Positions 29,230-34,104 of a stretch of 64,000 nucleotides of DNA are shown here, piece after piece; position 1 is the stretch's first letter, and each line of letters starts with the position of its first letter. The notes under the pieces are model-generated. The model was not told the origin of the DNA, searched no databases, and saw only the letters and a list, made by a program, of their open reading frames with translations. Made by a program: the position numbers and the translations under genes. Origin of the DNA: Candidatus Izemoplasmatales bacterium (GTDB lineage: Bacteria > Bacillota_I > Bacilli_A > Izemoplasmatales > Hujiaoplasmataceae); NCBI GenBank assembly GCA_028691315.1, contig JAQUZN010000002.1:1-64000 (forward strand), given 5' to 3'.

Positions 29230-31578
29230 TTGGTCGCAAAAGTCTTAGTAGATGTGAAAGCTAAAGCAGTGAATAAACTTTATGATTATGCTGTCGGCCA
29301 AGACTTCGAAAACATATTAGAACTTGGTATGCGTGTTATTGTCTCGTTTGGTTCAAGAGAAGTCATGGGGTACGTGTTAGACATTGTCTTAGAGAAAGAA
29401 ACAAACGCTCTGTTGAAACCCATAATAAGGCTTCTTGATTTGGAATCATATATCACAAAAGAACTCATTGATTTAGCGTATCAAATTGAAGAAGATACAT
29501 CCACTGTGCTAATTAAGGTATTAGAAACAATGCTGCCAAGTGCTTTAAAAGCAGTCTATAAGACATCCTTTGAAGTGATTGATGAAAATCTGCTACCTGA
29601 TTCACTTAAAAAGGTTTTTAGTGGTGGAATTGAGATACCTTTCACTGAAGAATTTTTTCCATATGCAAAGGAAATAAAATCAAGTCTTCAAAAAGGAGCT
29701 ATCAAACAAATATATGATATCTCTTCAAAAAGTAATCCTAGAACCAAAAAGATTGTTCGTTTTTTGAAAGAGCTTGATTCATATAAAAATGATAAACAAA
29801 AAAAAGTTATCGAATATATAAAAAACCATCAAAACGAATCTTTAGTTCTTACTGATTTACTTCGAAATTTACAAGTGACGTCTTCTGTCATCACAACTTT
29901 ACAAAAACATGGAGCTTTAGAATTACTTAATCAAGAACAGTATCGGGAGATCTTGTCAATTCAAAAGCCAAATCATAAAGAAGTAACATTGAATGACGAA
30001 CAAGAAACTGCATTTATAAAAATTAATCAAAAAATTAACCAATATGTTACGTTCTTGCTTCATGGAGTGACTGGATCAGGAAAAACAGAGATTTACATTA
30101 AATCAATTGAAGAAGTATTGAAGAGTGGTAAAGAAGTGCTTTTTTTAGTGCCCGAGATTGCTCTCACGCCAATGATGGTGAACAGATTTAAATCTCATTT
30201 TCAAAACCAAGTTGCTATTTTACATTCTGGATTATCGATCGGCGAAAAATACGATGAATGGCGAAAAATCATTCGCAAAGAAGTATCAATTGTTATTGGA
30301 GCAAGAAGTGCTTCTTTTGCCCCATTTGAGAACTTAGGGCTTATCATCGTTGATGAATGTCATGAATCTACTTACAAACAAGAAGAAATGCCAGCTTATT
30401 ATGCAGTTGATGTGTTAAACCACAGGGCAAAGCATTATCAGATTCCTTTAATATTAGGATCAGCTACTCCAAACATTGAGTCTTATGCTAGATATAAACG
30501 TGGATATTATGAACTATTAACACTTAATCACAGGGCGCTTAATTCATATGAACCAGACATTGAGATAATTGACATGAAAAAAGAGTTTTTGTCTGGGAAT
30601 TCAGAATTATTTTCTAGAACTCTAGTTCAAGAGATAAATTATCGACTAGAAAAGAAAGAGCAAGTGATTCTTTTGCTGAATCGTAGAGGGTATTCAAATT
30701 TTGTTATTTGCCGAAACTGTGGATATGTTTTTTCATGTAAAGATTGTGATATCTCACTAACTTATCATGATACGGATCACACTTTAAAATGTCACTATTG
30801 TGGACACAAAGAAGAAGTTCCCCATGAATGTCCTAAATGTAAATCAAAAGACCTTCGTTTCATGGGAGTGGGAACTCAAAAAATTGAGACAGAACTCGCA
30901 AAACTATTTCCGAACTCTAAAGTAATACGAATGGATAACGATACAACAAGGACAAAAAATGCCCATGAGAAATTACTAGATGAATTTGAAAAAACAGGGG
31001 ATATATTATTAGGAACACAGATGATTGCTAAAGGACTTGACTTTCCACATGTGACTTTAGTAGGTATCTTACAAGCGGATGGTAATTTATATTCGCCAGA
31101 TTTTAGAGCGCCAGAAAAGACATTCCAGTTAATCACTCAAGTTGCTGGACGTGCTGGAAGGCATGATTTAAAGGGTAAGGTTGTAGTTCAAGCTTTTAAT
31201 CCGGATCATTATGCTATACGTTTTGCGATTAACCATGATTACTTAGGTTTTTATGAGTACGAAATGCAATTGCGAAAAATCGCTAAATATAGTCCTTTTT
31301 ATTATATTAATCAGATTATGCTGTCTAGTGAAAACGTTCGAGATATCTTTTTATGTGCACGAGAAATCATCAAGTATTTAAGGAAAGAATTATCAAAAGA
31401 AGTAATAATTTTGGGGCCTACTTTGCCCGTTATTTCTAGAATAAAAAATAAATATCGTTGTTTGATATTGCTTAAGTACAAAAACGAACCTAACTTGAAC
31501 CAATCTTTGGCATATATAAAAAATCAATTCGACACGGACTTAATCTACATAAGTATAGATAAATTCCCAACAATATAG
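29230..31578 (+). CDS. priA: Primosomal helicase PriA
   Basis: A 782-aa replication-restart helicase. N-terminal DNA-binding domains (about 1-240), then Walker A GVTGSGKTE, DEAH-like VDECHES, the eight-cysteine zinc cluster (CRNCGYVFSCKDC, then CHYCGHKEEVPHECPKC) and the motif VI region TQVAGRAGRHD. TTG start at 29230 after GAGGTGGT. In Firmicutes priA usually runs into def and fmt; here an IS110 element separates it from fmt and no def is seen. Confidence 0.96.
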   Translation: MVAKVLVDVKAKAVNKLYDYAVGQDFENILELGMRVIVSFGSREVMGYVLDIVLEKETNALLKPIIRLLDLESYITKELIDLAYQIEEDTSTVLIKVLETMLPSALKAVYKTSFEVIDENLLPDSLKKVFSGGIEIPFTEEFFPYAKEIKSSLQKGAIKQIYDISSKSNPRTKKIVRFLKELDSYKNDKQKKVIEYIKNHQNESLVLTDLLRNLQVTSSVITTLQKHGALELLNQEQYREILSIQKPNHKEVTLNDEQETAFIKINQKINQYVTFLLHGVTGSGKTEIYIKSIEEVLKSGKEVLFLVPEIALTPMMVNRFKSHFQNQVAILHSGLSIGEKYDEWRKIIRKEVSIVIGARSASFAPFENLGLIIVDECHESTYKQEEMPAYYAVDVLNHRAKHYQIPLILGSATPNIESYARYKRGYYELLTLNHRALNSYEPDIEIIDMKKEFLSGNSELFSRTLVQEINYRLEKKEQVILLLNRRGYSNFVICRNCGYVFSCKDCDISLTYHDTDHTLKCHYCGHKEEVPHECPKCKSKDLRFMGVGTQKIETELAKLFPNSKVIRMDNDTTRTKNAHEKLLDEFEKTGDILLGTQMIAKGLDFPHVTLVGILQADGNLYSPDFRAPEKTFQLITQVAGRAGRHDLKGKVVVQAFNPDHYAIRFAINHDYLGFYEYEMQLRKIAKYSPFYYINQIMLSSENVRDIFLCAREIIKYLRKELSKEVIILGPTLPVISRIKNKYRCLILLKYKNEPNLNQSLAYIKNQFDTDLIYISIDKFPTI

Positions 31579-31642
31579 AAATGGGTGACTAACTATCTTT
31601 AGTCAATAAAAAAATATAATAAAATAATAGTTTATGACAAAA

Positions 31643-31664
31643 CACCTAATTTTAAGGATTAGGT
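31643..31664. repeat. Small inverted repeat in the IS right end
   Basis: ACCTAAT (31644-31650) and ATTAGGT (31658-31664) flank seven bases, downstream of the transposase stop. It could form a hairpin on either strand; no T-run follows. Confidence 0.5.
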
Positions 31665-31719
31665 AAAATAATATAGAGAAGAAATGGATAACTGATTGCG
31701 CTACACAATCAAAAGTTAA

Positions 31720-32870
31720 CTAGCGTAGAAGAGTTTGGTCGTAATTCATATGTTTAGTTTCAAGCGTAAAGATTAGACGGACAAGTTTACGAGCAAGATG
31801 CGATAAGGCAACAAGATGAGATTTACCCTCAGAGCGTTTTTTCTTATAGTAGTCATAGAAAACAGGGTTCCAAATTAAAGAATATTCAGCGACCCTAAAA
31901 AGCGTAGCACGAAGATATCCAGAACCACGTTTCACCATTCTACCCTTTTTCGATTCTGTACCGGATTGATAAATAGCAGGATCCATCCCAGCGAAAGAAA
32001 GCATTTGAGCAGGAGAATCAAAACGAAGAATATAACCAAACTCAGATAGAATCGAAGCGGCTGATAAGGGACCGATACCAGGGATTGAAAGAATCGGCGA
32101 AGAGATATACGTAATCAAGGTTTGAATCTGAAGTTCGAGCTTACAAATTTGAGTATTGACCGCTCTAAATAACTCAAGGATAGAAGAAAATTCTAGTAAA
32201 AGAATGGGATCAGAGGACCCAACTGTGTTAATAGCCAAAGATTTCAGCTGAATGAATTTAGCATAGCTGAAATGACCGCGTGAAAGTGAGCGGAATTCAT
32301 TTTGGATATCTTAGATGGAGACACAAATTTATACAAGATATAGAGCGCAGTTTTGCCTAATTTATGGTGAAAGAACGGCTTAAACTCTGGGAACAGATAC
32401 TCTAAAATATTTGTCAGTTGAACAAGGTGCTTAGAGCGTTGTAAAACAAAGGAGCTCCTTAGACGAGAAAGTGATTTTAGAAAGAACATGTGGTATGATT
32501 GAGGTGGATAGGTCTTGTACTCCACTGAGAGTAATAATCTAGCGATGGATTTGGCATCAAGAGGATCGGTTTTCGTTTTTTTTAACGATTGAGCCTGTGA
32601 GAACTTATGCGTTAAGAGCGGATTAAATTCCATGAATGAAAAACCATTCTTTTCCAAAAACATCTTGAGATTAAAACCGTAATGACCAGTGGCTTCAAGG
32701 CCTATTCGCATGATTTGTGAAGCATCAAGTGATTGAAGCAATTTTAATAATTGATCAAAACCCGCTTTTGAATTGTGAAACGAGAAATTCTTTTGAATCA
32801 CACAACCTGTTTCAGTAGCGATGAAACAGTCGTGCTTGTATTTGGAAATATCAATACCGACCAAATACAT
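31720..32870 (-). pseudogene. IS110-family transposase, broken by a frameshift
   Basis: N-terminal part (32870-32244) is the DEDD RuvC-like domain: GIDISKYKHD, GLEATGHYG, and TDPLDAKSIAR supply the D-E-D-D residues. ATG 32870 follows GGTAGGTG. The C-terminal part (32238-31720, open further upstream in its frame) is the Transposase_20 domain with SIPGIGPLSAASILSEFG and the catalytic Ser in YQSGTESKKG. The two lie in different frames; the switch falls between NSAHF and RGHFSYAKF near 32280, consistent with loss of one base. IS110 enzymes are not known to use programmed frameshifting, so the copy is probably inactive. Confidence 0.85.
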
Positions 32871-32901
32871 ATCAAACACCTACCTTTATAAAAAGAATAT
32901 C

Positions 32902-33057
32902 GCACTGATGGTCTGCACAGTCATTTTACGGGTGTATTCATGTTTTAGATAAAGCGTCAAGCGCTATCCAACTGATAAACACTAAAAATAAAAGACTGTG
33001 GTAAGTGTCACCCAAAATAGTCTAAGCTATCATAAAACAGAGACAAATCCACAGTGC
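32902..33057 (-). ncRNA. Candidate IS110 bridge RNA
   Basis: Read on the minus strand, a TGATATAAT extended -10 (33072-33064) would start RNA near 33057. The first bases GCACTG pair with CAGTGC at 32907-32902, closing an about 156-base domain. Inside are at least two hairpins: AGACT...AGTCT with an inner TGG/CCA, and GATAGCG...CGCTTTATC around CTTGA. Known IS110-group bridge RNAs are of similar size and lie in this position upstream of the transposase. The guide loops were not matched to target, so this is a structural and positional proposal. Confidence 0.5.
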
Positions 33058-33121
33058 ATTCATATTATATCACTGTCAAAAAAGACAATGAAACAACCAA
33101 AGATAAAAACAAGGAAGGAGA

Positions 33122-33159
33122 TATAATCAAACCATCTAAATAAAGATAATTTGATTATA
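33122..33159. repeat. Inverted repeat just before fmt
   Basis: TATAATCAAA (33122-33131) and TTTGATTATA (33150-33159) flank 18 bases, directly upstream of fmt and near the presumed IS left end. An AAGGAAGGAG purine stretch lies just before it, too far from the fmt start to act as its ribosome site unless the hairpin brings them together. Confidence 0.55.
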
Positions 33160-33168
33160 CATGATTAT

Positions 33169-34104
33169 ATGAATATAATTTTTATGGGCACTATGGAATT
33201 CGCCGTCCCTATTCTCGAGGGGTTAATTGAAACAGAGAATGTGCTATTGGTTGTAACACAACCTGACAGACCATTCGGAAGGAAACATATTTTAAAACCA
33301 TCTTCGGTCAAGTTGAAGGCTTTAGAACATGGGATTACTGTGTTTCAACCAGAAAAAATAAAAGAAAATGTTAACCCTATATTAGAACTCCATCCAGATG
33401 TCATTATCGTTGCAGCATACGGTCAAATGATTCCTAATATTATCTTAACTACACCGCCATTCAGATGCATCAATGTACATGCTTCTTTGCTTCCAAAGTA
33501 TCGAGGAGGTGCGCCAATGCACAAGTCGATTCAAAATGGGGAAGCCTACACGGGCGTTACGATCATGAATATGGCGATGAAAATGGACTCTGGTGATATT
33601 TTAACGCAAAGAGCAATTCCAATACTAGATACTGATGATGTTGGCTCTATGCAGGAAAAACTCGGCTTATTAGGCAGGGATTTGCTACTAGAGACATTGC
33701 CAAAAGTGTTTTCAGGCGAAATCGTTCCTGTGAAACAAGATGAATCACAAATCACTTTTGCTTATAACATCAAACCTAGTGAAGAACACATCAATTTTAA
33801 TCAAACGGCTAGACAAGTCTTTAATCATGTTCGAGGTTACCATCCTTGGCCATTAACATACACTTTAATTGATGATCAAATGTTAAAATTATACCAAGTT
33901 AAAATTAGTGATGAAACAGCAGTAATTTCAAGTATTCCTGGTGAAATATTGGAAGTTACTAAAAACTCTTGTATCGTTCAAACCGAAAAAGGGACAATAT
34001 CGTTAGTAAATATCCAACTTCAGGGAAAAACACCGATGGATATCTCTACTTTCCTAAATGGAGTAGGAAAAACACTACTTGTTCCAGGGAAGATACTGAA
34101 ATAG
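33169..34104 (+). CDS. fmt: Methionyl-tRNA formyltransferase
   Basis: A 311-aa enzyme that formylates initiator Met-tRNA. NIIFMGTMEFAVPIL is the standard start, with THF-binding and catalytic pieces PFRCINVHASLLPKYRGGAP (Asn, His) and MDSGDIL (Asp). A C-terminal OB-like domain follows (about 205-311). The ATG at 33169 is chosen by homology; there is no good ribosome site directly before it, probably because of the IS insertion. In Bacilli fmt normally follows priA and def. Confidence 0.95.
   Translation: MNIIFMGTMEFAVPILEGLIETENVLLVVTQPDRPFGRKHILKPSSVKLKALEHGITVFQPEKIKENVNPILELHPDVIIVAAYGQMIPNIILTTPPFRCINVHASLLPKYRGGAPMHKSIQNGEAYTGVTIMNMAMKMDSGDILTQRAIPILDTDDVGSMQEKLGLLGRDLLLETLPKVFSGEIVPVKQDESQITFAYNIKPSEEHINFNQTARQVFNHVRGYHPWPLTYTLIDDQMLKLYQVKISDETAVISSIPGEILEVTKNSCIVQTEKGTISLVNIQLQGKTPMDISTFLNGVGKTLLVPGKILK

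What the first reader, a model, noticed from the sequence alone, without database searches (positions are those of the whole stretch)
32880..33160. Structured non-coding end of the IS110 element: candidate bridge RNA
The long non-coding end lies upstream of the transposase, as in the IS110 group. It has an extended -10 (TGATATAAT), a closing helix GCACTG/CAGTGC 156 bases apart and internal hairpins. IS110 recombinases are now known to use a bispecific bridge RNA from this place, so a natural guide-target pair may be readable from the priA-fmt junction.
Basis: partly seen in the sequence, partly recalled or inferred. Interest (0 to 1): 0.68.

Follow-up and report, generated by a model that had tools for sequence, protein, structure and literature searches.

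The report
Bridge RNA aiming at start codons
This is a real guide RNA (bridge RNA) of an IS110 jumping element; its relatives use it to insert just in front of host genes' start codons, and they appear to carry a spare ribosome-binding site so that the gene behind the insertion can still be translated.

Summary
Window 31586-33161 (- strand) is a 1576-bp IS110 element inserted in the 14-nt priA-fmt gap; a same-genus genome has the empty site. Its transposase is broken: about 19 nt are missing. The non-coding end encodes a 156-nt RNA (33057-32902). A covariance model built from 53 relatives without the window finds it at 132 bits. Helices, both guide loops and handshake bases covary with targets and donor ends (0 of 500 or 5000 shuffles reach the observed values). 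In the window the right-target guide matches 6 of 6 bases; the left-target guide is only suggestive.

LT holds CAT (reverse ATG), RT the reverse Shine-Dalgarno (SD), as known for IS900. 59 of about 85 insertions lie 3-12 nt before an ATG ORF (null 7%). The hit genes include the only ileS, GAPDH and glnS found in their genomes.

The left end also carries, facing the host gene, an SD-like AAAGGAG beside a covarying hairpin. It is nearly universal where insertion strips the host SD (55 of 56) and often lost where the SD stays (11 of 19 lack it; Fisher 2e-7, post hoc). I infer a replacement ribosome-binding site. No published description was found, but the library searched is limited.

The parts
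31586..33161 (-). IS110 element (one core copy included); second core copy at 33162-33163
   Evidence: Ends set by relatives: the core dinucleotide is identical at both ends in 59 of 62 elements; empty site in same-genus genome G001.
33162..33163 (.). core dinucleotide at the left end (CA on - strand, TG on +)
31586..31587 (.). core dinucleotide at the right end (CA on - strand, TG on +)
32244..32870 (-). transposase N-terminal part (RuvC-like DEDD domain), ends in a frameshift
   Evidence: PF01548 6.3e-35; DEDD residues kept.
31720..32238 (-). transposase C-terminal part (Transposase_20 domain, KRGSGYLR serine kept)
   Evidence: PF02371 1.8e-22; about 19 nt missing at the junction relative to relatives.
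33064..33072 (-). internal extended -10 (TGATATAAT), about 7 nt upstream of the bridge RNA 5' end
   Evidence: Sequence; inward TATAAT with 0-1 mismatch in 71 of 74 relatives.
32902..33057 (-). bridge RNA, 156 nt, GCACTG...CAGTGC
   Evidence: Model R1 hit at 32899-33060, 132 bits; covariation.
33029..33037 (-). left target guide (TTTTATGAT), pairs LT TCATATAAT 8 of 9 with wobbles
   Evidence: Clade-wide permutation z 7.2; not significant for this copy alone.
33018..33029 (-). hairpin of the target-binding loop (TAG...CTA); its first base overlaps the left target guide
   Evidence: 3 of 3 pairs covary, 98.7% of cells paired.
33009..33014 (-). right target guide (TGGGTG), pairs RT CACCCA 6 of 6 including the core
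   Evidence: Clade-wide permutation z 11, 0 of 5000; register.
33007..33008 (-). handshake guide (AC), pairs GT of the element's right end
   Evidence: 0.92 paired versus 0.77 expected at both positions.
32965..32974 (-). left donor guide (CAGTTGGATA), pairs right end TAGTTAGTCA
   Evidence: Unique register, summed z 24.6.
32953..32965 (-). hairpin of the donor-binding loop (AGCG...CGCT)
   Evidence: 4 of 4 pairs covary, 99% of cells paired.
32939..32943 (-). right donor guide (ACATG), pairs CATGT of core plus left end
   Evidence: Unique register, summed z 25.6.
31601..31606 (-). -35 box TTGACT of the promoter formed in the circular form
   Evidence: 57 of 60 right-left end junctions have the pair at one position with 17-bp spacing.
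33154..33159 (-). -10 box TATAAT of the junction promoter; also inside the left-end hairpin
33115..33120 (+). outward SD-like sequence AAGGAG facing fmt (SD')
   Evidence: Anti-SD energy -12.9; in relatives median -10.3 versus -2.6 in flanks.
33122..33159 (+). left-end hairpin TATAATCAAA...TTTGATTATA between SD' and the fmt start
   Evidence: -10.3 kcal/mol, z -6; arm complementarity versus permuted z 14.8; also in the fold of the fmt leader.
33169..34104 (+). fmt, host gene whose SD was displaced; ATG 5 nt after the core
29230..31578 (+). priA, host gene on the other side; stop codon 7 nt before the core

Best explanation
The region is the left end of an IS110-group insertion sequence and encodes its bridge RNA. 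Shown by comparative sequence: the RNA has a target loop and a donor loop; each has a left guide that pairs the bottom strand and a right guide that pairs the top strand, both aligned on a CA or CT core; the donor loop reads the element's own joined ends; those joined ends form a TTGACT-17-TATAAT promoter. Shown: the target read by this clade is the translation start of host genes (reverse ATG on the left, reverse Shine-Dalgarno on the right), so the element lands between SD and AUG; here it separated fmt from its SD. Inferred (about 0.65): the SD-like AAAGGAG next to a hairpin at the left end, facing the host gene, is a replacement ribosome-binding site, and the hairpin shortens its distance to the AUG from about 33-60 nt to about 9-17 nt. 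Not shown: which promoter transcribes the host gene, and any expression. This copy cannot make an intact transposase.
For: Model without the window finds it at 132 bits; helices covary; guides pair targets and donor; cores identical at both ends in 59 of 62; junction promoter in 57 of 60; empty site; ATG ORF 3-12 nt from the core in 59 of about 85 versus 7% null, and AGG in 45 of 53 right flanks; closest solved proteins IS621 and ISCro4. For the replacement RBS: SD' energy at or below -9 in 69% versus 4% in flanks and 0% on the other strand; hairpin; SD' absent in 1 of 56 when SD is lost versus 11 of 19 when it is kept; the only ileS, GAPDH and glnS found in their genomes sit behind such insertions.
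Against: No expression data. The window's left target guide is weak and its register differs by 1-2 nt from other clades. For the replacement RBS: the hairpin is also present in elements that lack SD', so it must have another role too; collapsed spacing (mode 12) is longer than native (6-10); an earlier rank correlation on fewer clades was not significant (rho -0.14, p 0.29); the source of outward transcription is unknown.
Confidence: 0.9

Rival explanations
1. The left-end hairpin plus CTCCTTTC is not for the host gene but for the element: read inward it is a terminator or insulator, or CUCCUUUC is an anti-SD that holds back transposase translation or the right target guide.
For: The hairpin exists also where SD' is missing, and in L102 and L124 it is followed by a T-rich run. 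The inward motif is pyrimidine-rich.
Against: No terminator-like site at the window's left end. The motif matches canonical anti-SD rather than the transposase SD by eye, and its presence tracks whether the host gene lost its SD. The neighbouring gene is transcribed away from the element, so little inward readthrough is expected.
Confidence: 0.22
2. The 156-nt region is only the transposase 5' leader (an attenuator or riboswitch-like element), not a guide RNA.
For: It lies directly upstream of the transposase start and folds well.
Against: Variable loop positions track the flanking host DNA of each copy and the element's own ends in strand-specific registers; a leader would not.
Confidence: 0.02
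3. Landing at ribosome-binding sites serves to express an antisense gene of the element from the host SD, as proposed for hed of IS900.
For: Same target type as IS900 (PMC8141618).
Against: No such ORF here: the stop-free run from the right end has a median of 9 codons, maximum 30.
Confidence: 0.03
4. Insertions survive simply because host genes tolerate loss of the SD or a second gene copy exists; the SD-like motif is incidental.
For: Some hit genes are not essential. Many relatives are metagenome bins.
Against: Single copies of ileS, GAPDH and glnS are hit. The motif is strand-specific, as strong as native SDs (median -10.3 versus -10.8) and conditional on SD loss.
Confidence: 0.12

Closest known systems
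IS621 and its bridge RNA (IS110 group; PMC11208160, PMC11208158)
   Same: RNA upstream of the transposase, target and donor loops, left guide to bottom and right guide to top strand, core in the guides, handshake guides, discontiguous right donor guide, promoter formed at the right-left end junction.
   Different: Core is CA or CT (IS621 CT, second base T almost invariant); target is the translation start, not REP; extra internal -10 before the RNA; left-end hairpin and outward SD.
IS900 (IS110 family, Mycobacterium avium subsp. paratuberculosis; PMC8141618)
   Same: Target motif CATGNNNNNNTCTCCTT, i.e. between start codon and SD.
   Different: IS900 carries an antisense hed ORF said to use the host RBS; none here. 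Whether IS900 has the left-end SD and hairpin was not tested.
IS1111 group with seekRNA (PMC11187229)
   Same: DEDD transposase family and RNA-guided targeting.
   Different: IS1111 has subterminal inverted repeats and the non-coding region downstream of the transposase; here it is upstream and both arms of the inverted repeat lie in the left end.
T4-type mRNA hairpins that bring a distant SD near the AUG (gene 25; from memory, not checked here)
   Same: Hairpin between SD and AUG would shorten the functional spacing.
   Different: Here carried by a mobile element and delivered in front of other genes.

Membership tests
IS110 family | DEDD (RuvC-like) domain plus Transposase_20 domain with conserved serine | tested here: met
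   PF01548 and PF02371 hits; residues aligned; frame broken in this copy.
IS110 family | Insertion at a short core without terminal inverted repeats or long target duplication | tested here: met
   Only the 2-nt core is repeated; empty site.
IS110 group | Long non-coding region upstream of the transposase | tested here: met
   32871-33161 upstream, same in relatives.
IS110 bridge RNA | Conserved structured RNA with two loops, supported by covariation | tested here: met
IS110 bridge RNA | Target loop: left guide pairs bottom strand, right guide pairs top strand | tested here: met
   Clade z 7.2 and 11; in the window right guide 6 of 6, left guide suggestive only.
IS110 bridge RNA | Donor loop pairs the joined right and left ends, core included | tested here: met
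IS110 bridge RNA | Promoter reconstituted at the right-left end junction | tested here: met
   57 of 60 junctions.
IS110 bridge RNA | RNA expressed and bound by the recombinase; guides reprogrammable | not testable with these tools
   Needs RNA sequencing and recombination assays.
IS621-type core | CT core with near-invariant second T | tested here: not met
   Window core is CA; clade is 28 CA and 31 CT among elements with matching cores at both ends.
IS1111 group | Non-coding region downstream of the transposase and subterminal inverted repeats | tested here: not met
   Upstream region; hairpin arms are both in the left end.
IS900-type targeting | Target CAT-N-reverse SD at gene starts | tested here: met
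   IS900 motif from PMC8141618.
Rfam 15 families | Match to a described RNA family | tested here: not met
   No credible match in 31000-34000.

The most novel reading that the evidence does not exclude
A clade of RNA-guided IS110 elements aims its bridge RNA at the Shine-Dalgarno/start-codon region of host genes and brings its own replacement ribosome-binding site on a foldable spacer, so that even essential genes survive the insertion; clades that land so as to leave the host SD in place have often lost it.
Probability: 0.62. Interest if true: 0.75.

Novelty: new variant of a known kind. Interest (0 to 1): 0.62.

Why it matters
It gives a natural guide-target-donor set in a low-GC clade related to Izemoplasmatales and Acholeplasmataceae, with a CA core that IS621 does not use and a right guide that is essentially an SD sequence. 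It offers a bridge-RNA account of the long-known RBS targeting of IS900-like elements. If the replacement ribosome-binding site is real, it shows how a mobile element can use every gene start as a landing site at low cost to the host, and it is testable in a single reporter experiment.

Tried and rejected
Rfam search: nothing. Plasmid collection by DNA: no match. The same-genus search for further copies of this exact element found only two left ends of a related element at contig ends. First automatic left-end registration was wrong for about ten elements and was corrected; L002 and L003 stayed misregistered in the later scripts until. First left-guide scan with a regex hairpin anchor was uninformative and was replaced by an alignment anchor. 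Rank correlation of retained SD versus SD' not significant on the first set; only after adding outgroup clades did the 2x2 test become clear, so that test is post hoc, though stable over thresholds -6 to -9. IS900 hed-like antisense ORF: rejected. Outward -10 in the left end is only mildly enriched over shuffles, so an outward promoter is not claimed.

Full report
OBSERVATION. The protein halves hit PF01548 and PF02371. The nearest solved proteins are ISCro4 and IS621. The reading frame is broken near 32240: the halves are 8 nt apart where relatives have 27. DEDD and serine residues are kept, but this copy cannot make a whole enzyme.

RELATIVES. A protein scan of genome contigs gave 80 loci of the same clade, and genomes of the host's family gave more. 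Upstream of almost every transposase lies the same region, GCACTGTGGATTTGT-variable-TACAGC..GACTGT-variable-GAGGTGAC..CCACAG-..-AGTTAGTTAACGC..GACGTT..CACGTGATTACA..TGTGG..CAGTGC. One same-family genome carries the element found in an Izemoplasmatales bin (L087 and L007 have identical upstream sequence), so the host is probably near Izemoplasmatales.

STRUCTURE. A covariance model from 53 relatives, window excluded, hits window 32899-33060 with 132 bits, E 1.4e-22. RNAalifold finds 14 consensus pairs, 11 with changes on both sides. For the structure I named (closing helix GCACTG/CAGTGC, target-loop hairpin, donor-loop helix and hairpin), 17 of 24 pairs have double changes; 0 of 500 shuffles reach the observed value, and sliding partners by 1-3 columns lowers paired cells from 88% to 25-43%. 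The helix CTGTGG/CCACAG and the closing helix share bases, so one may replace the other; this is not resolved.

ENDS, TARGET AND DONOR. The core dinucleotide is identical at both ends in 59 of 62 elements (CT 31, CA 28). The window has CA at 33162-33163 and 31586-31587. A same-genus genome holds the empty site: priA stop-AAACGAG-TG-ATGCAG-fmt ATG, against the joined window flanks stop-AAATGGG-TG-ATTAT-ATG. The right target guide pairs the right target (first five non-core positions 4.40 versus 3.30 permuted, z 11, 0 of 5000; within core classes z 8.3 and 6.6). The left target guide pairs the left target (z 7.2, 0 of 5000). Left and right donor guides and both handshake contacts show one clear register each, matching the IS621 scheme in PMC11208160 and PMC11208158. 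In the window the right target guide pairs CACCCA completely. The left target guide reaches 8 of 9 with wobbles but is not significant alone (2 better and 6 other ties among 84 left targets). Joined right and left ends give TTGACT-17 bp-TATAAT in 57 of 60 cases, as in IS621.

WHAT IS TARGETED. Left targets contain CAT and right targets the reverse of an SD. Of 87 elements, 62 have an ATG ORF within 25 nt of the core, 59 of them at 3-12 nt; random positions give 7%. AGG occurs in 45 of 53 right targets and AGGAG in 29. So the clade inserts between SD and AUG, with the transposase pointing away from the hit gene. The same target type is reported for IS900, CATGNNNNNNTCTCCTT (PMC8141618). No hed-like antisense ORF exists here. 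Hit genes include ileS, type I GAPDH, D-Ala-D-Ala ligase, glnS, secDF, hemW and here fmt; for ileS, GAPDH and glnS the copy behind the element is the only full match found in its genome or bin.

REPLACEMENT RIBOSOME-BINDING SITE. Read outward, the left end has an SD-like AAAGGAG, 0-6 nt later a hairpin, then 2-9 nt to the end of the core, then the host spacer and ATG. Hairpin MFE z averages -4.6. The arms are complementary beyond permuted left ends (z 14.8). The 17 nt next to the hairpin, chosen without regard to SD, have a median anti-SD energy of -10.3, against -0.2 on the other strand and -2.6 in host flanks; native sites have -10.8. Linear SD'-AUG distances are 33-60 nt; with the hairpin collapsed mostly 9-17 (mode 12), against 6-10 natively. 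In the window it is AAGGAG (33115-33120), 1 nt, a 38-nt hairpin (33122-33159), 9 nt, and the fmt ATG at 33169, i.e. 10 nt when collapsed. Natural control: adding outgroup elements, SD' is missing in 1 of 56 distinct elements whose insertion removes the host SD but in 11 of 19 whose insertion leaves one (Fisher 1.6e-7; significant at cut-offs -6 to -9). These fall in about six clades by my reading, so they are not fully independent, and the test was framed after seeing examples. Since the hairpin persists in elements without SD', it must do something else as well.

LIMITS. Everything is comparative sequence. Expression, RNA ends, recombinase binding, outward transcription and translation were not measured. 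Many relatives are metagenome bins. The literature search covered open-access papers only; nothing there describes an IS110 element that supplies a ribosome-binding site.

Noticed in passing
window 32207-32260 (- strand): Transposase frame broken by about 19 missing nt relative to relatives; DEDD and serine residues otherwise intact.
   Followed up: yes
L002 1500-1639 and L003 1510-1638 (same genome, contigs C140 and C76): Two left ends of a second, related IS110 element stop at contig ends, which suggests a multicopy element collapsed in the assembly; both sit 6-8 nt upstream of start codons, one of them of an ABC transporter ATPase-like ORF.
   Followed up: partly
window 33151-33168: The ORF list starts fmt at a TTG inside the insertion sequence; the true start is probably ATG 33169, so automatic annotation may misplace start codons next to these elements.
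   Followed up: yes
L030, L035, L038, L047, L077 left ends: The internal promoter before the bridge RNA is a near-perfect palindrome (TTATTATA..TATAATAA), which could be a divergent promoter or an operator.
   Followed up: partly
L126, L141, L146, L148 and L102, L124, L127: Outgroup clades whose core lies at the 5' edge of the SD keep the SD on the gene side and lack the outward SD, but keep a left-end hairpin of unknown role.
   Followed up: partly
CP076021 loci L059, L062, L063, L081: Complete Mycoplasmatota strain zrk7 chromosome with several copies, including two close together (L059) and broken ones; a good cultured host for tests.
   Followed up: no
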